A DNA stretch of 64,000 nucleotides. It comes from Auricularia sp. M13 (Eukaryota; Basidiomycota; Agaricomycetes; Auriculariales; Auriculariaceae). Of this stretch, positions 115 to 38,957 are shown one piece after another (the stretch's first letter is position 1; each line of letters opens with the position of its first letter). The position numbers and the translations under genes are program-made. Location: NCBI GenBank assembly GCA_037042915.1, contig CM073197.1:1488001-1552000 (forward strand). Direction: 5' to 3'. The notes beneath the pieces were generated by a model that did no database searches, was not told where the DNA came from, and saw only the letters and a program-made list of their open reading frames with translations.

Positions 115-1897
115 TCATTGGAACATCCAGAGTGCATCCTGGAATGTACATGCCTCTTCGGCAATGCACCTCGCCAACTCAGCGTCCGACATTCTGGGGT
201 CCTCAAGAAGAAGCTTCTTGGCGAGCTTGAAAGCAAATTCCCGATCCTCGTCCGTGAAGCGATTGCCAGTGCCACCGCCCACCACAGTCGACGGCGGAGT
301 GGGCGAGCGAGCCTGGGTTCTCTGCGAGTACCGGTTCTCTCGCGGAGTCGACGGTGTCCGCGGTTCCTCTTTCTTGACTCTCGACGACTGCGACTTGGAG
401 GCTGCGATGGCGTCGTCTCGGAGCCTTCTGCATTCCGCTGAGAATTTCCTGCAGAAACCTGAATATAGCGCAAGAACCATGAGTTCTGAACGCACCGGCC
501 GATATGAGAGGCCCATGATGCTGATGTATGGTGAGGCGCCTGGTAACAAGGTAAGGGGAGGGAAATTCCACATGTAGCAGACTTCCACGAACCTTTCGCG
601 CGAGGTATTGATCGCGTCCATGGTCCGATATGTGCGGGTCGCGATGCAGAAGCCATTTGTATGCCTGAAGCGCAAACCGATTATCGTCGGCAGTGAACAG
701 ATTCCCCCTGCCGGCAGCAATGATCTCGGTGGAAGGTTCAGGTTCCCGTGACATGTCCTGGTTTAGTGTATAAGAAAATGCCAATGTCGGGGTTGAAGGC
801 GCTCTGGTGGACGTCTTCGGTGGCTTCGGGGTGCTCGGGCCAGCAACGGGGCTTTCGGTGCAGGCTTGGTCGTGGATGCGGATTTTAACAACTTTGCCGG
901 GCTCGACGAAGGCGTTGTGGTGGTGCCAGCCATTGACTGCTTGCGCGCCGATGGGATAGCAGATGCCGGAGTGGGTACAGATTCAACGAAGGGCTTCCAA
1001 TCCACGAGACGATTTTCCCTGTCACATGCGTCAAGCCAGGTCGACTGAATAGCAGGCTTTCCAGCGGGCAGCTGCGTAATTAAGATATCAAAGTCTGCGA
1101 TGCTGGCGGACAAGATGCAGTAATCTGCTTCGGCCATGTCGAATGTGGTCTGCCCTCCGTGTTTCTGGCGCAGGGTTTCAGCCTCGGATGATCAGGCATA
1201 AAGGATGTGCGCACCTTGACGAGGCGTATGAGCGCCATGCGGTTCACGAAGCGCATCTGAATGAAGAATTTGCAGGGCTCCCCGTCTGGGCGCTGGAAGA
1301 TTGGGCGGCGGCTTTGTGACTGCGGCGGCGGCGAGGGCGAGAGCGAGAGACTGCTGTCGCGGTCGATGGCAATGTGCAGAGGAGACGAAGTCAGGGATCT
1401 GCTTGCAAGATGCGGTTAGGGGCCCGGGTCGGTATTAACGCAGGGGTTTGTGCTCGCCTGGAAGCTCGCGCCTCCTCGAGCGCGTTGTCTTGGATGAAGT
1501 GCACGTCGTCCTCGTGCTCGGCGTCAATGCTGTCGATCTTGTCGTTCCAGATATACTGGTCCATAGGCGGCGCGAAGCCCTCGCGCACGGCCGCCCACGC
1601 CCACGCGCTGTCGACGAGGCCTTTCTTGGAGCCCCATTCTTCCGCGAGACGTTTGATCTGGCTGGGGTTGGAAGGATTAACGAGAAGGATACGCGCGTCG
1701 GCTATCTTGGTGACGATGCGAGCACCGTGTTCCTGCGTCGGTGGTTAGCGGGGACGCGGTTGGGCGACCGGGAGACTGTGGCTTGCCTTCATTGCATTTC
1801 GTAGTCTGGGGAAGTCCTCGACGGTCATGTCAATGTAAATCGCAAGTGGCGTGTCGTTTCCATCGTCCTCGATGAAGATTTGCGGCGTGCTCGACAT
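115..1897 (-). CDS. Rap1-like protein with two BRCT domains and Myb/HTH-like repeats
   Basis: The gene reads leftward in several exons. BRCT 1 starts at the ATG at 1897 (MSSTPQIFIEDDGNDTP) and continues after an intron near 1745 through KIADARILLVNP to KKGLVDSAWAWAAVREG. BRCT 2 (about 1300-1000) begins PDGEPCKFFIQMRF and after an intron reads KHGGQTTFDMAEADYCIL, then PAIQSTWLDACDRENRLVDW. Two related C-terminal segments open with GNLFTADDNRFALQAYKWLL (about 710) and GNRFTDEDREFAFKLAKKLL (about 290), each resembling a Myb-type DNA-binding helix. An acidic, basic and Ser/Pro-rich linker lies between them. A BRCT with the KFF and KHGG signatures followed by a Myb-like domain is the order seen in fungal telomere protein Rap1, so a telomere role is inferred. 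No Rap1 C-terminal (RCT) domain was recognised. Another BRCT protein is possible. An upstream in-frame ATG at 2026 is less likely. Confidence 0.55.
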
Positions 1898-30397: not shown

Positions 30398-30917
30398 TTA
30401 CTTCTTGTACCCGTTCCTGCGAGCAATGTCCGACGCAGATGCGCTGCGCTTGCCGCTGCGGCAGTAGAAAATAACTTCGTCGTCGAACTTGGGCTTATTA
30501 AACCCGTGCGCCTCCAGGAACTCCTTTTGACCGAGCTGGATAGATTTCGCAAAGCCTGAAAGCGGAATAGACACGGCGGACGGGATTGCGCCCTGCGCGA
30601 CTTCGTCCGGTTCGCGCACGTCGATCAGGTATACGTTCTGCGGCAGAGTGAGAGTCTGCAAGCCTGCGTTATGCTCGGACGGTTCGCACTTCGCTGGGCT
30701 GTTCAGTAAGCTGCTTTATGCGTTCATAAGGCACCACGGGCGCTGCCCAGTCCGCCTGCAGGTCTGCGCGCTCTTTGGCTTGCTCCGAGGTATGTTCGAA
30801 GCGCCTCAAGGCAGGAAGACGCGTTGCAAGGACACGGGGACGCGCATGAGCGTGCAAGGATCGTGTAAGGCCACTTCTCGAGGCTACAGCGACGCGGCGG
30901 GCGGCGAGAGACAACAT
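30398..30917 (-). CDS. Mitochondrial single-domain rhodanese-like protein
   Basis: Sulfurtransferase-fold protein. The ATG at 30917 starts an Arg/Ala-rich presequence (MLSLAARRVAVASRSGLTRS) suggesting mitochondrial import. Exon 1 ends VPYERIKQLTEQPSE. A 52-base intron (acceptor after cactctgccgcag) leads to NVYLIDVREPDEVAQGAIPS, AVSIPLSGFAKSI and LEAHGFNKPKFDDEVIFYCR. The active-site loop is CRSGKRS, so the catalytic Cys is present, and the end is ARRNGYKK at 30398. The size, about 155 residues, fits the small fungal mitochondrial rhodaneses similar to yeast Rdl1/Rdl2. A role in thiosulfate or persulfide metabolism is inferred from the family. Confidence 0.86.
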
Positions 30918-32236: not shown

Positions 32237-32918
32237 ATGGTCTTGCCCCAGTTCAAGGACTTGCACTCTCACGGAGGAATGACCATGGATGGTAATGCCA
32301 CGGGTGGCATGTCAGCATGGATGCACGTCGTTGGCGGTGACACCATTTGGTTCGAGGGCTGGGCACCGTCTTCACCGGGTGCCATAGCGGCCGCGACAAT
32401 CGGTCTCTTCTTGCTGGCCATTGTTGAGCGGTGGCTGTCAGCAATGCGCACAGTCATGGAAGCGTGGTGGAAGCAGAAGTGAGTGACCGCGATCGTCGCC
32501 TGTCTGCGACTGAAGCTCGTCTTAGAGCGGAGGCTGTCGTGGCTGCTCGTATGGTCGGCTTCCGCCCATCAGTCGCAGAAAAGACGGTCGAGTGTGGCAG
32601 CTCTGCAACGTCTCTAGCTGCAGTCGCGTCACCGCCGGTCAGCGGGGCAGCGGCTCTCCGACTTGCTTCCATCCGTACTTCGGCGCCTTTCATCCTATCC
32701 CACGACCTGTCACGCGGGGTGCTTCATGCCATGCAATCTGCCATTTCTTACGGGCTCATGCTGGCCATCATGTGCGTCCATATGTGCTCGGGCATCCTCT
32801 CCATGCTCATCACATTGCCAGGACTTTCCAAGCTGCATACTTCATTGGCATCGTGCTCGGACTGGGCGTCGGGGAGTTCTTGTTTGGCCGATATGGCCGG
32901 GGTGCCGCTATACACTGA
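32237..32918 (+). CDS. Ctr-family high-affinity copper(I) transporter
   Basis: Trimeric plasma-membrane Cu(I) channel. The ATG at 32237 gives a short His/Met-rich extracellular N-terminus (DLHSHGGMTMDGNATGGMSA) that would bind copper. Then come the WMHVVGGDTIWFEGWAPSSP segment and TM1 (GAIAAATIGLFLLAIVERWL). An intron (about 32480-32526) joins MEAWWKQK to AEAVVAARMVGFRPS of the cytosolic loop. TM2 (RGVLHAMQSAISYGLMLAIM) carries the conserved MxxxM as MLAIM; a second intron follows. TM3 (TFQAAYFIGIVLGLGVGEFL) carries GxxxG as GIVLG and ends FGRY. All pore features of the family are present. It is the first of three plus-strand genes with linked copper/metal-uptake functions. Confidence 0.92.
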
Positions 32919-33208
32919 CATCGCTTTGCTGTCCCCTGTATCATGTCAGTCAATATGTACAACTATCCTATAGAGAATACATCGCCCAGTTGTCACAGGC
33001 CCGTCGCGAGACTGATATTGAATATATCCAGTCCTTGTTCGTCGCGATCCCACGTCAATGAAGACGTGCACATGCGTAGTTGTGGCCTTCTGACTCAGAT
33101 TCTGACGATGTCTTGAACGTTGAACGTTGGACATACTGCCAAGACTTGATCGAATCAGATATTGTGAAAAAGTTTTTCGTGGTCCATACCTTCGGCGAAA
33201 ACTATCCG

Positions 33209-33214
33209 TATAAA
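33209..33214 (+). promoter_or_regulatory. TATA box of the BIM1-like gene
   Basis: A perfect TATAAA in the context cgtataaagcg, 62 bases upstream of the ATG at 33276. The same gTATAAAg context occurs before the FRE gene. Confidence 0.5.
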
Positions 33215-33275
33215 GCGAGGTTCATTCGTGCCTTTTCCATGTCGTACCCAGCTACCCCGCAGACAAACAAGGAAA

Positions 33276-34046
33276 ATGCGCGCCTTCGCCTCGTCTCTTG
33301 CTGCCCTCGCGCTTGCTTCCAGCGCAGCGGCCCACTTCGTGCTAAACTACCCTCCGGGTCGTGGATTCGCGGCCGAAAAGGAGCCAGAGCCCATCTGCGG
33401 TGGCTTCCCGGACGTTTCGGCCAACCGCACGGAATTTCCGCTCAAGGACGGTATTGTGTTTATCTCGAGCCACCACCCGCACGCAAACAGTCTGTTTATA
33501 GCTCCTGCCTTGTACATGTCGCCTTCCTAACCTCCTTTGCAGTCTATGTTGCGATTACGCTCGCCGAAAACCCGACCAAGTTCGACGAGTTCAACTCGAC
33601 GTCCGAGGGTGGCAAGGGCGGCGCAGTCCTGCCGTTCTTCAGGGTGACCAGCGAGGGCGACTTGTGCTTCAACACGAACATCGAGGCGCTGAAGATCGAT
33701 GGTGCGAAGGACGGCGCCAAGGCAACTCTTCAAGTCATCTACGACGGAGGCGACAGCCAACTATATCAGGTGGGATTTCTGTAGTTACACCTGCCGGCGC
33801 GGTGCTGATGCGTGCCAGTGCGCGGATATCATCCTCTCTGCCAGCGCCAAGTCCCCCGAGCAACCGACCTGCAAAGTAGTCGTTCCGGGTGAGGCGAGCG
33901 ATGACGACTCGGACCACGATGACGACCATGGCTCGACGGGGGGTAACTCGACAACGACTGAGCCGCCGAACGCTGGCATGAAGACCTCGGCATCCCAGTT
34001 CGTTGCTGCTGCGGTTGCATTCGCTGGCATGGCTCTGGCTATCTAG
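33276..34046 (+). CDS. BIM1/X325-like copper-binding GPI-anchored protein
   Basis: Member of the LPMO-like X325 family. In Cryptococcus, the family member Bim1 works with Ctr1 to acquire copper; X325 proteins bind copper but do not cleave polysaccharides. The ATG at 33276 starts a signal peptide (MRAFASSLAALALASSAAA) whose cleavage would expose HFVLNYPPGRGF, giving the N-terminal His of a histidine brace. CGGFPDVSANRTEFPLKDG follows. Then comes VFISSHHPHAN, joined across a 53-base intron (about 33491-33543) to IYVAITLAENPTKFDEFN; a His here is the likely second ligand. Next are GGKGGAVLPFFRV, GDLCFNTNIEALKIDGAKDG and TLQVIYDGGDSQLYQ. A second intron leads to CADIILSASAKSPEQPTC, a Ser/Asp/His-rich stalk (DDDSDHDDDHGSTGG) and a hydrophobic C-terminus (SQFVAAAVAFAGMALAI) typical of a GPI signal. 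Confidence 0.88.
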
Positions 34047-34228
34047 TTGGTGATTACTATGAACCATCTTTACGGGCCTCTGGCGTGGATGCAAAATAAA
34101 TATTTGATCTGGGCAATAAATATATGAAATGCGCAGAGAAAAAGAATTTGTATCGGGCTATGCGGAGGGCCACCGGAGTTGAATGTGACGGCAGCACTTT
34201 CCTCCGACCGCTCACGACATAAGCCAGG

Positions 34229-34234
34229 TATAAA
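34229..34234 (+). promoter_or_regulatory. TATA box of the FRE gene
   Basis: TATAAA in the context ggtataaagac, 51 bases before the ATG at 34285. It lies in the 238-base gap between the BIM1-like stop and the FRE start. Confidence 0.5.
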
Positions 34235-34284
34235 GACACCGCGGGGCTGTCTTGGGTTGCCCTCCTGTTCATTCCCGTTTCGAC

Positions 34285-36296
34285 ATGGCTGGTACGCCTC
34301 CTCAAGCGCCCCCAGAGCTCTCCATTTACAAGTGCGCTGGCACCTGTGTCCTGCGATCCCTCCTGACGTCGCATACGCAGTTCCTACGGCATTGACCCTC
34401 AATATGCTCGTGGATTCACAGCGCTCTGGACATCTGCGTTGGGCGTAGCCATTCTCGTCTCTCTGCCGAGCGTTTTACGATCGATACGGACTGGGAGGAC
34501 GTACCAGGGCTTGGGCCTCTGGGAGGACCTGCAGGGCAAGACTTATGCACCCATTTCGGACTCGGAGAATTCGCCTCCACCAAAGCCACGCTCACGAAGA
34601 ACTGTACGACCGCTGATGGACTGGTTGAGGACGAAAGGCAATGTCTTACCACGAGGACTCAACCTGAATATTACCCAAGGTACCGCCGTATCCTTCAGCA
34701 TCCGGACAGCGCCGTTGACAACGCTATGCAGTGCTTATTGTTGTCGTCTATATCGGCGCATTGGTATTCTGCACCTTTCACAAGGTACCAATTAGAGAGT
34801 ATCCAAACCGTCCTGGTATGCACGTCCTGCCGAGTGGCCGGGCAATTGCTGACAGTGTACACATCAGGGTTCATGAGCGTTGCTCAGCTGCCGGTCATCT
34901 TCCTATTTGCCTCCAAGAATGGCGTACTGTCCCTGCTACTTGGTCGTGGATACGAGAAGTTGAATTTCCTCCATCGCTGGGCGGGACGGGCTATCCTGGT
35001 GACCACGACAATTCATGGCTCGCTCTGGATACGCAACCATTTGACGCAAGCCCCCGAGCTGATGAAGGGGAGCAAGGAGCGCTATGGGATGGCCGCGTAC
35101 GGAACGCTTTGCCTCATCGTCCTGTCTTCCTTGGGACCTGTGCGAAGAGCTGTCTATCAATTATTTTTCTTCTGCCAGTACGTTCTTTGCCAATTGCTGC
35201 CGCGCTGTGACGCTCACGCCCGAGCGACAGCGTGATTGGATATGTTGCCTTCTTCATTATTGTATGCTACCACACGCCGTACGCAGTGCCGTGGATATTC
35301 CCCGCCGTCGCATTCTATGCAGCCGACCTGCTTGTGCGCATGGTACGCTTCCGGTTCAAGGATGCCACGGTCGTCGCAGTCGACAACCAGCTGACGCTCG
35401 TTCGTCTTCGTTCTTCACATACCCCTTTCGATGCCACTCATGCGATCTTCAGCTCCATGTACATGATGTTGATGGCGGCTGGATAGCGGGCCAGCACGTC
35501 CGAGTGCGCGCGCTCTTCGGCGGCCGCGTTTTCGAGTCACATCCATTGACAATATGTACTGCGCCACCGTCAACGTCATGCTCGGAGCAGCGGGGGCTGC
35601 TGCTTGGCGCGCGAGTGCAAGGACCGTGGACGCGCTCTTTGAACGCCCTCGCTGCGCAGCACGAAAAGGGCGCCCGTTTACTGGTCATGCTCGACGGTCC
35701 GTACGGTGGATGCAGGCTCGATCTCGGAGAGTTCGAGAATGTGCTGCTTGTTGCTGGCGGCTCGGGTGTCACGTTTACCCTTGGCCTGCTGGACGACCTG
35801 GTGGGCCGCGTTGTGCGACATGGCAGGAAGCATGGAGAGGTGACCAGGCGCGTCGAGTTCGCGTGGTGCATTCGCTCTTTCGGTATGTGTAGCACATGGT
35901 TTACCTTACATGTTCACATGCTAAGCGGCAATAGGCGCCATCGCATGGTTCGAGCCTCTGCTGCTTGACATTGCGCGCAAGGCGAAGGGCAGCTCGCTTG
36001 ACGTGCACATCTCTGTCTACGTGACTTGCCTATGCGACCCCGAAGCGGTCCCTGACATCCCCAACATGGATGTGACGCTGGACAAGCCGTCGATGAAGAG
36101 CCACCTGAGCCTATTCCTCACGCCCGATAGCGACAAAGAGGCAGGGAGCGTGGCATCTGGCGGCGGGCTTGGGATAGCTGTCTGTGGACCATCAGACCTG
36201 ACACGGGAAGCGCAGAATACGGTGGCGAGGTTATCGCCCGCGCAGATGAAGCTGTTGGGCGGGGCATCGCTGCACACAGAGCAGTTCTGTTTGTAA
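34285..36296 (+). CDS. FRE-family ferric/cupric reductase
   Basis: Plasma-membrane flavocytochrome that passes electrons from NADPH through FAD and two hemes to extracellular Fe(III) or Cu(II). Exon 1 (MAGTPPQAPPELSIYN) is joined by an intron (about 34332-34380) to SYGIDPQYARGFTALWTSAL. The ferric-reductase membrane domain includes GFMSVAQLPVIFLFASKNGV, LNFLHRWAGRAILVTTTIHG and VIGYVAFFIIVCYHTPYAVP, with the paired heme His residues. The FAD-binding part has GGWIAGQHVRVRALFGG and ESHPLTI. The NAD-binding part has VLLVAGGSGVTFTLGLLDD, and the C-terminus has GIAVCGPSDLTREAQNTVA. All FRE hallmarks are present across about eight exons with no frame break seen. It is third in the copper cluster. 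FRE proteins reduce both metals, so copper specificity is inferred from the neighbours. Confidence 0.9.
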
Positions 36297-36412: not shown

Positions 36413-37480
36413 TTAACGCAACTTGCCCATCTGTGCCTTGGCACCTTGAAGCTTGCTGCTGGTGTTATCGACCTCGTCGGAGAATTGGTCGAGTATCTCG
36501 ATCTGCTCCGCAATCTCCTGGCCGATGGCGATCCCGAGATGCTTCTGACGCTCGAGGATAGAGGAGAGTCGGTTGAGGTGCTGGTCTTGCTGTTCAATCT
36601 GCAGCTGCTGCAGCTGCACAAGGCCGCGTTCGTCTAGAGGACGAGTCTGTTCCGTTTCCTGTGGCGGTTGGCGTTGGCCAAAGACACGCGTCGGAGGCTT
36701 GGTAGACGCTGCGCCCAGCAGTTCAGTCCGCTCAGCGCGAGCTTGCGAACTTGTTGCGGGCTGGGAGGTCGCGATGGCACGCGCCGTCTTGGCCGCGATG
36801 ACGATGCGGCTGAGCTTCTCGCAGTCGTCGTTCAGCCTGGCGACCATGTCTGTCCGACGCTGAACTTCGCCCTCGCTCATGCCCGCCGTTGCCAGCGCGC
36901 TCAGCGAGGTAGCAAGGACGCCGACACGCGTGACCAGCGCCGCGAGCTTCTTCTTGGCCTGGACGTTGGCGGTATGCGCGCCAGCGACGTCCCCGCGCTC
37001 GGCCAGCGCGTCCCGCTTGAGTGTGTCAGCCCGGATGTCGCGCGCCACGGCCTGCAGATCGAGCTGCTCATCAAGCCAGGAAGACGCCGTAAACTGCGCG
37101 CTGCCATCCGGGGCCGTGTTGCCCTTGCCAATGGGTACAGCGATGAAGTCCTTGAAGGCGAAAGTGTCGCGCCACCGAGAGTCGCGCGAGCTCAGGATAG
37201 CCCGCAGATAGCGCTCCAAGCCCTGGCGCCGCTCCTCTAGAATGGCAGGGTCGTGCATGGTGCGCCTGAGCGAAAATGTGTGCTTGGGCGGGAGCTCGGC
37301 GGGCGGGGCGGCGCCGGCAGCCTCGGTAAGCTCATCGTGCAGCTCGACGAACTCGGAATAGCGACGCCAGGTCTCCCATGACCGTACGGACGCGATGACC
37401 GCAATCTTGAAGACGGTATGCGGCTTGGGCTCGCTGCGCTCCTTGTGCTCGGGGACGGTTATGGACTGGACCGTGGTCAT
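36413..37480 (-). CDS. VAM7: PX-domain SNARE Vam7-like
   Basis: Soluble Qc-SNARE of vacuole fusion. The ATG at 37480 (MTTVQSITVPEHKERSEPKP) begins a PX domain that binds PI3P: VFKIAVIASVRSWETWRRYS, EFVELHDEL, ELPPKHTFSLRRTMHDPAIL and ERRQGLERYLRAILSSRDSR. A helical middle region follows. The C-terminal coiled coil (QQLQIEQQDQHLNRLSSILE, then ERQKHLGIAIGQEIAEQIEI) is a SNARE motif with Gln at the expected zero layer, ending KAQMGKLR. There is no C-terminal membrane helix, as in yeast Vam7, which is held on vacuoles by PX and HOPS. The gene appears intronless after the start. The frame is open far upstream, but that part is low-complexity and unlikely to be coding. Its partner Ypt7 is encoded at 52816-53774. 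Confidence 0.85.
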   Translation of the reverse strand: MTTVQSITVPEHKERSEPKPHTVFKIAVIASVRSWETWRRYSEFVELHDELTEAAGAAPPAELPPKHTFSLRRTMHDPAILEERRQGLERYLRAILSSRDSRWRDTFAFKDFIAVPIGKGNTAPDGSAQFTASSWLDEQLDLQAVARDIRADTLKRDALAERGDVAGAHTANVQAKKKLAALVTRVGVLATSLSALATAGMSEGEVQRRTDMVARLNDDCEKLSRIVIAAKTARAIATSQPATSSQARAERTELLGAASTKPPTRVFGQRQPPQETEQTRPLDERGLVQLQQLQIEQQDQHLNRLSSILERQKHLGIAIGQEIAEQIEILDQFSDEVDNTSSKLQGAKAQMGKLR

Positions 37481-37631
37481 GATGTCAGTCAGGGTGCGTT
37501 CGGCTGCGAGCGACTGCGCGCCTCGACACATCTGGCAACGAGCGACCTTGTATTGCAATATCCTAACCATATACAATAATATACTAGGATATTTAATTAC
37601 AGGCGATCGGAAGATATGAAAATTGATGCAG

Positions 37632-38957
37632 TGATACCCAGGATCAAACAGACCCCAACAAGTGTACCCTATCCCGCTTCCTCGACGACGGCGCGCTGGC
37701 TGGAGCGAATGTAGAGATAGAGCGCGTGGGCGGCGGCTCTGACGGCGCCACGCTCGCCCCCCGCCCGCCGTCGCCCGCGCTCTCGACGACGTCCAGCGTG
37801 TCCAAATTCCACGAGGAGCTCGACGACGACCGTGTTTCTGTGGTCCCACCCTCGCCGCCCGACGCCGAGCCGCCGTCGCGCCCGCGCAGCCCGCAGACCG
37901 AACAGGGCGCCGGCTTCTTCGGTTCCGGCGAGCGCAGCGCCGACGGCCTGCGCTTGCTCGCAAAGCGCTTCCGCGCCAGGACGCACTCGGGCGGCCGCAT
38001 CCGCCCAGCCAGCGGCGTAGGCGAGCGGCGCACGCGCGTACTCAGCGTCGAACGGCCGTCCTTTGAGGTCTCCGTGACGCCGCCGACGCCGAGCACGGTG
38101 CTGGGGCTGGGCATGCCGGCGCACACCGAGAGCAAGGCCGAGGGCAAGAGAAAGGCCAGCGACCCCGACAGCAGCATGGACAGCAGCGAGCCTGCGGACG
38201 GCGGTACGTAGCCTGTCTCCGACCTGCTCACGTGCTCATCGCCGCCGTCGCCGTAGCCAAGCGCGTCCACACGAAAAGTCTGGCATCCAGTGCGCCGTCC
38301 GCGTACCGCAACGCCAAGCGCATCCGCCTCTCAACCCCGCACGAGGAGGCTGGCTCTTCCACGCTGCGTGGAGCCCCGCACGGCCTCGACCAGCAGCTTC
38401 ACCCGCCGCCGCGCCCGTCGTCGCGCGCAAGCACCGCCTATACCGTCCGCACCAACCGCAGCATCCCCGTCCGCGCCATCGTCAGCCCCCGCCCACCCAG
38501 CATCGCAGGCTCGAACAGGACATTCCACATGCGCGACCCGACCGCTCGCCCGCCACCGCCCGTGGGCTGGCGGCCGCTCTCTGCTGTGCTCGACGAGGAT
38601 ATCCAGGTCCCTGTCGTCCCCTCGGCGCAAGTCCCGCCTCCTAGGAAACGATCGGTCCCCTGGACGGCGTGGGCGTTCTACCTTGGCTTTGTGCTCTTCC
38701 CGCTCTGGTGGATCGCCGCCTTCAGCAGGGTCTCTCCCTGGCCTGGGAGGGAAAAGCCAAATTGGCAGGGTTGGCTGCAAGCACGAGGTATGTTGCTGGT
38801 CTTTGGCAGCTGGGTTTGAGCTCTGATTTGCCGTCATATAGACCAGCGAGCGTGGAGGCGGCGGAATAGATGGATGAGTGCTGTCGGCCTCGTTGTCTAC
38901 ATCCCCATTATCGTCCTCGCCGCCGTGTTTGGCGGCAAAGCCACCGTCACTGAGTAG
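37632..38957 (+). CDS. Hypothetical protein with two C-terminal membrane helices
   Basis: Not assigned to a characterised family. The 5' end is not resolved: the frame is open from an acceptor-like site at 37631 (DPNKCTLSRFLDDG, then NVEIERVGGGSDGATLAPRP), so a first exon probably lies further left. The long N-terminal region is Ser/Pro/Arg-rich and probably disordered. An intron (about 38202-38257) leads to KRVHTKSLASSAPSAYRNAK. Near the end is a membrane segment, VPWTAWAFYLGFVLFPLWWI. After an intron ending near 38848 comes DQRAWRRRNRWMSAVGLVVY, with a second helix continuing IPIIVLAAVFGG. Stop is at 38957. A long disordered cytosolic part with a C-terminal hairpin of two helices resembles uncharacterised membrane proteins of Agaricomycetes. 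Confidence 0.6.

What the first reader, a model, noticed from the sequence alone, without database searches (positions are those of the whole stretch)
32237..36296. Compact copper-acquisition cluster: Ctr transporter, BIM1/X325-like protein and FRE reductase side by side
Three consecutive plus-strand genes encode the three surface steps of copper uptake: Cu(II) reduction (FRE), extracellular copper capture (BIM1-like, N-terminal His brace, GPI anchor) and Cu(I) import (Ctr with MxxxM/GxxxG). Gaps are 357 and 238 bases. That Bim1 cooperates with Ctr1 in Cryptococcus is established; physical clustering with both Ctr and a reductase is, to my knowledge, not a standard description. Clustering suggests co-regulation and possibly a surface complex.
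Basis: partly seen in the sequence, partly recalled or inferred. Interest (0 to 1): 0.85.

Follow-up and report, generated by a model that had tools for sequence, protein, structure and literature searches.

The report
Fungal three-gene copper uptake cluster
Three neighbouring genes in a fungal genome encode a copper importer, an anchored surface copper-binding protein and a metal reductase; the grouping is real and sensible, but an apparently matching trio was already reported in another fungus, so this is a new example of a known arrangement.

Summary
Three intact, intron-containing plus-strand genes lie at 32237-32918 (Ctr), 33276-34046 (BIM1/X325-like) and 34285-36296 (FRE-type reductase), with gaps of 357 and 238 bases. 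Pfam, alignment to a crystallised relative and motif checks support the identities, including aligned His/His/Asp residues and two H-x13-H pairs. In the 52-Mb genome one of 3 Ctr loci, one of 2 BIM1-like loci and one of about 9 reductase-family loci meet here; chance placement gives about 5e-7.

The reading (reduce, capture, import copper) is the best explanation, by inference. The novelty claim fails: A. fumigatus has three adjacent, co-induced genes for a GPI protein, a Ctr and a metalloreductase (PMC2481287), and PMC13208438 lists three consecutive A. fumigatus accessions as BIM1, Ctr1a and FRE7 homologues. A metalloreductase stands beside a Ctr gene in 110 of 127 species in PMC7705104. I saw no report of the trio in a basidiomycete, which this genome appears to be.

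No shared promoter element was found; conservation in relatives could not be tested. Co-regulation here rests on analogy; a surface complex is speculation.

The parts
32237..32918 (+). Ctr copper transporter gene, exons 32237-32478, 32526-32771, 32822-32918; 194 aa; MxxxM at residue 159 and overlapping GxxxG at 172/176
   Evidence: model; PF04145 6.7e-33; CTR1 chimera 6m97, 8e-7; motifs
33276..34046 (+). BIM1/X325-like gene, exons 33276-33489, 33543-33769, 33819-34046; 222 aa; presumed signal peptide exposing His20, second His67, Asp150, C-terminal hydrophobic GPI-type tail
   Evidence: model; PF20238 1.8e-31; 6ibh 5.1e-23, residues aligned
34285..36296 (+). FRE-type metalloreductase gene, exons 34285-34331, 34381-34679, 34732-34815, 34868-35177, 35231-35399, 35453-35882, 35935-36296; 566 aa; two H-x13-H pairs (from residues 179 and 247)
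   Evidence: searches (model; PF01794, PF08022, PF08030)
32919..33275 (+). Ctr to BIM1 intergenic region; TATAAA 67 bases before the BIM1 ATG; no Mac1-type TGCTCA and no fission-yeast Cuf1 consensus; one TTTGCTG at -351
34047..34284 (+). BIM1 to FRE intergenic region; two AATAAA signals just after BIM1 (34095, 34115) and TATAAA 56 bases before the FRE ATG, suggesting separate transcripts
30398..30715 (-). Rhodanese-domain frame, nearest Pfam-supported frame found upstream: outside the cluster; no gene was assigned between it and the Ctr
36413..38041 (-). Open frame that holds a PX-domain protein gene: downstream boundary of the cluster

Best explanation
A three-gene copper-acquisition cluster. 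Proposed mechanism: under copper shortage the FRE protein, a plasma-membrane bis-haem flavocytochrome, passes electrons from cytosolic NADPH to the outer face and reduces Cu(II). The GPI-anchored BIM1-like protein holds Cu(II) in its histidine brace (His1, a second His, an Asp) near the membrane and gives it up to the reductase or to the Ctr mouth. The Ctr trimer lets Cu(I) enter through its Met-lined pore. The genes are probably separate transcription units, in tandem, and probably respond together to copper shortage. Shown here: gene structures, family identities, aligned copper-ligand residues and haem-type histidine pairs, and that this is the only place found in this genome where the families meet. 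Inferred: localisation, copper (not iron) as the reductase substrate, joint regulation, hand-over between the proteins.
For: Families and domains. BIM1 aligns to LaX325 (6ibh) from residue 1 of the mature chain, with a His (H67 on H49 of the chain) and the CAD aspartate aligned (alignment confidence is only moderate around the His). FRE has two H-x13-H pairs, Ctr has MxxxM and GxxxG. Non-random adjacency (with 4, 9, 20, 21, 45). In other fungi: C. [quoted passage not shown] P. destructans BLP2 (VC83_03095) and FRE VC83_03096, consecutive tags, both rise under copper withholding (PMC12113139 section 4.2; protein log2FC 3.57 and 3.59, PMC13208438 passages); A. [quoted passage not shown] F. oxysporum Mac1 sites map to ctr3/fre9 and to the shared promoter of fre12/ctr1b (PMC11563359 passages).
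Against: No Mac1-type TGCTCA in the three upstream regions (0 in 1,595 bases, about 1.5 expected), no fission-yeast Cuf1 consensus, and no shared k-mer above background; a lone TTTGCTG lies at -351 of BIM1 (0.07 expected) but not before the other two. The FRE substrate could be iron. No expression data. A. fumigatus Afu6g02820 was more strongly up in wild type than in an aceA deletant under high copper, which fits a copper-excess response and complicates the starvation reading for that relative. The A. fumigatus triple deletion showed menadione sensitivity, none to hydrogen peroxide and no reduced growth on iron-limited media; I saw no copper-starvation test in the passages read. In this genome the other two Ctr loci and the other BIM1-like locus are not clustered.
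Confidence: 0.8

Rival explanations
1. The reductase serves mainly iron uptake (or both metals), and the cluster is a general reductive metal-uptake locus rather than a copper unit.
For: FRE reductases act on both metals in yeast (stated in PMC12113139); sequence alone cannot tell the substrate. Several reductase-family loci exist in this genome.
Against: Both direct neighbours are copper families. No iron-permease or multicopper-oxidase domain appeared among the frames scanned (2 flanking frames and 20 of the 43 frames of at least 230 aa), which is not a full annotation. A. [quoted passage not shown]
Confidence: 0.2
2. The BIM1-like protein works mainly in the cell wall (polysaccharide or copper-stress role), and its position between Ctr and FRE reflects copper supply to the wall rather than import.
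For: C. neoformans Cbi1 controls levels and exposure of wall chitin and chitosan (PMC9258870 passages).
Against: Cu-Bim1 released no soluble products from cellulose and oxidised ascorbate very slowly or not at all by itself (PMC7529816 passages); Ctr and FRE neighbours point to import.
Confidence: 0.12
3. The adjacency is neutral: three unrelated genes that drifted together, without functional consequence.
For: No shared promoter motif. The other Ctr and BIM1-like loci found in this genome are not clustered with the partner families (flanks read by eye in 26-28).
Against: Chance of about 5e-7, and the same families sit together, in whole or in part, in distant ascomycetes.
Confidence: 0.07

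Closest known systems
Aspergillus fumigatus Afu6g02800-Afu6g02810-Afu6g02820 (GPI-anchored protein, CtrA2, metalloreductase)
   Same: Three adjacent genes of apparently the same three families; XP_747797/747796/747795 are listed as homologues of P. destructans BLP2, CTR1a and FRE VC83_03096, and XP_747796 is called a hypothetical copper transporter Ctr in PMC2932688; co-induced
   Different: Order by locus number in A. fumigatus is GPI protein, Ctr, reductase; here Ctr, BIM1-like, FRE. Orientation there was not seen. That XP_747797 is Afu6g02800 is inferred from consecutive numbers; the 2008 paper, in the passages read, calls it only a GPI-anchored protein
Aspergillus nidulans ctrA-freC pair, with a metalloreductase in tandem in 110 of 127 species (PMC7705104)
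   Same: Ctr next to a metalloreductase; copper co-regulation
   Different: Shared promoter there; no BIM1-like gene in the section read; no significant match to A. fumigatus CtrA2 in the A. nidulans proteome, so AnCtrA is another Ctr type than the one in the A. fumigatus trio
Fusarium oxysporum ctr1b/fre12 and ctr3/fre9 (PMC11563359)
   Same: Ctr-FRE pairs with Mac1 binding sites
   Different: Divergent; the term BIM1 does not occur in the main text; Mac1-type motif absent here
Pseudogymnoascus destructans VC83_03095 (BLP2) - VC83_03096 (FRE)
   Same: BIM1-like and FRE with consecutive locus tags, both raised under copper withholding
   Different: CTR1a (VC83_00191) lies elsewhere by tag; adjacency inferred from tags and not remarked on in the passages and section part read
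Cryptococcus neoformans Cbi1/Bim1 with Ctr1
   Same: GPI-anchored His-brace protein working with a Ctr importer
   Different: Functional link; I saw no statement of physical clustering in the passages read. [quoted passage not shown]

Membership tests
BIM1/X325 (DUF6595) copper proteins | BIM1-like domain by curated profile | tested here: met
   PF20238 1.8e-31, cut-off 27, score 109.9
BIM1/X325 (DUF6595) copper proteins | N-terminal His after signal cleavage, second His and Asp as copper ligands | tested here: met
   Alignment to 6ibh starts at chain residue 1; H67 and D150 align with H49 and D130 of that chain (chain positions counted from the printed alignment). That the family uses two His and an Asp is stated in PMC10952591 and PMC7529816 passages; that H49 and D130 are the ligands in LaX325 is inferred. 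Signal cleavage is presumed: the hydropathy scan did not flag the N-terminus at its threshold. Metal binding itself not shown
BIM1/X325 (DUF6595) copper proteins | C-terminal GPI-anchor signal | tested here: inconclusive
   Only a hydrophobicity window (204-222) and residue composition; no GPI predictor available
BIM1/X325 (DUF6595) copper proteins | Copper binding without LPMO activity; role in copper import | not testable with these tools
   needs biochemistry
Ctr copper transporters | Ctr domain by curated profile | tested here: met
   PF04145 6.7e-33
Ctr copper transporters | MxxxM and GxxxG in the second and third membrane helices | tested here: met
   MxxxM at 159, GxxxG at 172/176, in the stretch aligned with the CTR1 chimera 6m97
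Ctr copper transporters | Three membrane helices, trimer | tested here: inconclusive
   Hydropathy shows helix 1 and an unresolved helix 2/3 stretch; trimer not testable
FRE metalloreductases | Ferric_reduct, FAD and NAD(P) domains in order | tested here: met
   PF01794, PF08022, PF08030 all over cut-off, in order; PF08022 only just (24.7 against 22 bits)
FRE metalloreductases | Two pairs of haem histidines | tested here: met
   H-x13-H from 179 and from 247; the spacing rule is recalled
FRE metalloreductases | Reduces Cu(II) at the cell surface | not testable with these tools
   needs assay; the best PDB matches are NOX2 and DUOX1, with a 'putative ferric reductase' further down, so NADPH-oxidase chemistry is not excluded by similarity alone
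Copper-uptake gene cluster of the A. fumigatus type | BIM1-like, Ctr and FRE genes adjacent | tested here: met
Copper-uptake gene cluster of the A. fumigatus type | Common copper or stress response | not tested
   No expression data; promoter scan negative

The most novel reading that the evidence does not exclude
The trio is an old selected unit of fungal copper uptake. It would be present in both Ascomycota and Basidiomycota, kept whole in some lineages (A. fumigatus, this genome), kept in part in others (BIM1-FRE in Pseudogymnoascus, the ctr1b-fre12 pair in Fusarium), and reshuffled in order while staying adjacent. That would imply that joint inheritance or physical hand-over between reductase, capture protein and channel matters.
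Probability: 0.35. Interest if true: 0.5.

Novelty: new member of a known kind. Interest (0 to 1): 0.3.

Why it matters
If the trio recurs across fungi in different orders, it gives a guilt-by-association handle on two open questions: which of several FRE paralogues is the cupric reductase, and how Bim1-bound Cu(II) becomes Cu(I) for Ctr. In this genome the cluster singles out one of about nine reductase-family loci and one of three Ctr genes as the likely Bim1 partners. It also ties together published observations that I did not see joined in what I read: the 2008 A. fumigatus triple deletion, the 2020 Ctr-FRE synteny and the later BIM1 work.

Tried and rejected
Shared promoter motif: Mac1-type (TGCTCA, TTTGCTC, DHNTGCTCA; the last from PMC11563359), a fission-yeast Cuf1-type consensus (recalled) and de novo shared k-mers of 6-10 bases gave nothing shared or above background; the short GCTCA core occurs before Ctr (2, 3.2 expected) and FRE (1, 0.76 expected), and one TTTGCTG before BIM1 (0.07 expected). 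TATAAA occurs before BIM1 and FRE but not before Ctr. Operon or read-through transcript: thought unlikely, because polyadenylation-like signals follow BIM1 and, more weakly, Ctr, and TATA boxes precede BIM1 and FRE; none was found within 204 bases after FRE. Origin in bacteria: of 30 pattern matches in the prokaryote collection none was confirmed as a relative, a close-relative search only; the BIM1 paralogue on contig C1 is 60% identical (127 of 212 aligned residues) with the second intron at the same site and the first near but not at the same site in my models, which favours descent within the lineage. A second copy of the trio: none found among 3 Ctr, 2 BIM1-like and about 9 reductase-family loci; these are lower bounds, one of the nine rests on the NAD domain alone, two lie 4.4 kb apart and could be one gene, and NADPH oxidases may be among them. 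Hits to these three families were nearly all on the plus strand; a minus-strand control gene was found correctly. L018, fetched around one other reductase locus, was not examined beyond serving as background sequence. Gene order in other Agaricomycetes could not be examined: the genome has no held relatives, and no collection I could scan is of fungi. The Labourel and Garcia-Santamarina Nature Chemical Biology papers were looked up under DOIs given from memory and were not held, so a statement there about clustering cannot be excluded. Ten literature searches gave no listing or passage that I saw on the trio in a basidiomycete; most listed papers were seen as listings only, and the library is open-licence only. 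Structure prediction was not run, because the spliced proteins are not contiguous translations of the window.
Full report
OBSERVATION. The window is part of a 52.1-Mb genome in 14 contigs (G000:C5:1488001-1552000). It is most likely a wood-decay basidiomycete: at least 49 DUF6533 matches and 16 matches to the fungal peroxidase extension domain were found; that these families mark Agaricomycetes is recalled, and no name or relatives were available. Three plus-strand genes lie side by side. Ctr: exons 32237-32478, 32526-32771, 32822-32918, 194 aa. BIM1-like: exons 33276-33489, 33543-33769, 33819-34046, 222 aa. FRE: seven exons, 34285-36296, 566 aa. The gaps of 357 and 238 bases are exact. Models rest on hand-chosen splice sites with domain continuity as guide; some FRE introns had other open candidates, and there is no transcript evidence.

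IDENTITY. Pfam places the Ctr and BIM1-like proteins far above cut-off; the reductase has all three FRE domains in order, the FAD domain only just over cut-off. The BIM1-like protein matches one distinct solved sequence, LaX325 (6ibh/6ibi/6ibj, 5.1e-23; the name LaX325 for it is recalled). The alignment begins at residue 1 of that chain, so signal cleavage would expose His20 as His1; H67 aligns with H49 of the chain, with moderate alignment confidence, and D150 with the Asp of the CAD motif. The Ctr carries MxxxM (159) and GxxxG (172/176), in the stretch aligned with the CTR1 chimera 6m97. The reductase has two H-x13-H pairs; its best solved relatives are NOX2 and DUOX1, so its substrate is not given by sequence. 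The window Ctr protein shows no significant translated match to the two regions that hold the other Ctr loci (best E 0.15), so it appears to be a distinct Ctr type; which yeast type it corresponds to was not tested.

SURROUNDINGS AND GENOME. The nearest Pfam-supported frames are a rhodanese frame upstream and a PX-domain gene downstream, both on the minus strand. I scanned 20 of the 43 window frames of at least 230 aa; matches above cut-off were BET, G-patch, helicase C, amidohydrolase, NPCBM_assoc and Kelch_3, none copper-related. This is not a full annotation. In the genome there are 3 Ctr loci, 2 BIM1-like loci and, joining two domain searches, about 9 reductase-family loci, all lower bounds. 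Only this locus was found to bring the families together; the positions of the other hits lie far apart, and the flanks of the other two Ctr loci and of the other BIM1-like locus show no partner gene by eye. Random placement would give about 5e-7 such coincidences within 2.5 kb.

REGULATION. TGCTCA, the core of the Mac1 element, is absent from the three upstream regions, with expectations of about 0.95, 0.34 and 0.23; the recalled fission-yeast Cuf1 consensus is absent too; one TTTGCTG lies 351 bases before BIM1 (0.07 expected). No shared 6-10-mer exceeds random stretches. TATAAA stands at -67 (BIM1) and -56 (FRE), expected 0.09 and 0.06, and not before Ctr. Polyadenylation-like signals follow BIM1. 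One copper-fist gene was found. So separate transcripts are likely; co-regulation is plausible but not shown.

PRIOR ART. PMC2481287 (passages) reports that Afu6g02800 (GPI-anchored protein), Afu6g02810 (copper transporter) and Afu6g02820 (metalloreductase) are adjacent on A. fumigatus chromosome 6, are higher in hyphae with normal than with CGD neutrophils, and were deleted as a block; [quoted passage not shown] PMC8425704 (passages) names Afu6g02810 ctrA2, down under high copper, and lists Afu6g02820 among genes more strongly up in wild type than in the aceA deletant under high copper. PMC13208438 (passages) lists XP_747797.1, XP_747796.1 and XP_747795.1 as the A. fumigatus homologues of P. 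destructans BLP2 (BIM1/CBI1), CTR1a and FRE VC83_03096 (FRE7). The consecutive numbers make it very likely that this is the same trio; that step is inference. PMC7705104 (passages and the section 'Screening for Cupric Metalloreductases') reports a metalloreductase in tandem with the ctrA orthologue in 110 of 127 species. PMC11563359 (passages) shows two Ctr-FRE pairs with Mac1 sites in F. oxysporum; it calls Fre12 close to yeast Fre7 in one place and says in another that the four reductases have no close yeast orthologues. PMC12113139 (abstract, part 1 of section 4.2, passages) shows BLP2 and FRE VC83_03096 both induced under copper withholding. PMC9258870 (passages) gives the Cbi1/Bim1-Ctr1 link. 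[quoted passage not shown] PMC2932688 (passages) gives 46% identity between C. neoformans CNAG_07701 and the A. fumigatus Ctr over the first 50 residues and names that Ctr XP_747796.1; the later name Ctr1 for CNAG_07701 is recalled. PMC11509074 (passages) places P. destructans CTR1a close to C. neoformans CTR1.

VERDICT. The finding is real and its functional reading is the most likely one. The claim of an undescribed arrangement does not hold: the kind is known in ascomycetes. What I saw no report of, within ten open-library searches, is the trio outside Ascomycota, with the order Ctr-BIM1-FRE. This is a new member of a known kind. The stronger idea, an old copper-uptake unit kept across Dikarya, is not excluded and is directly testable with public fungal genomes that were out of reach here.

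Noticed in passing
window 33897-33935: The linker of the BIM1-like protein before its GPI-type tail holds an acidic, His-containing run (SDDDSDHDDDHGS) that its C1 paralogue lacks; possibly an extra metal-binding patch.
   Followed up: partly
window 34095-34134: Two tandem 20-base units, each starting AATAAATA, shortly after the BIM1-like stop codon.
   Followed up: no
G000:C6:2614734 (L019): Only one copper-fist DNA-binding domain was found in this genome, a lower bound, recalling the single regulator Cuf1 of Cryptococcus.
   Followed up: no
L016 5' flank of the C6 Ctr gene: The unclustered C6 Ctr gene, not the clustered one, has a Mac1-like TTTGCTC at -311 (expected 0.13).
   Followed up: no
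G000:C1:4449059 and C1:4453467: Two ferric-reductase-domain matches 4.4 kb apart, possibly a tandem pair.
   Followed up: no
L017 1496-2437: The second BIM1-like gene lies downstream of what looks, by an HEYTH motif read by eye, like a fungalysin-type metalloprotease.
   Followed up: no
G000, several contigs: At least 16 peroxidase-extension matches, as expected of a white-rot type of fungus (the label is recalled).
   Followed up: no
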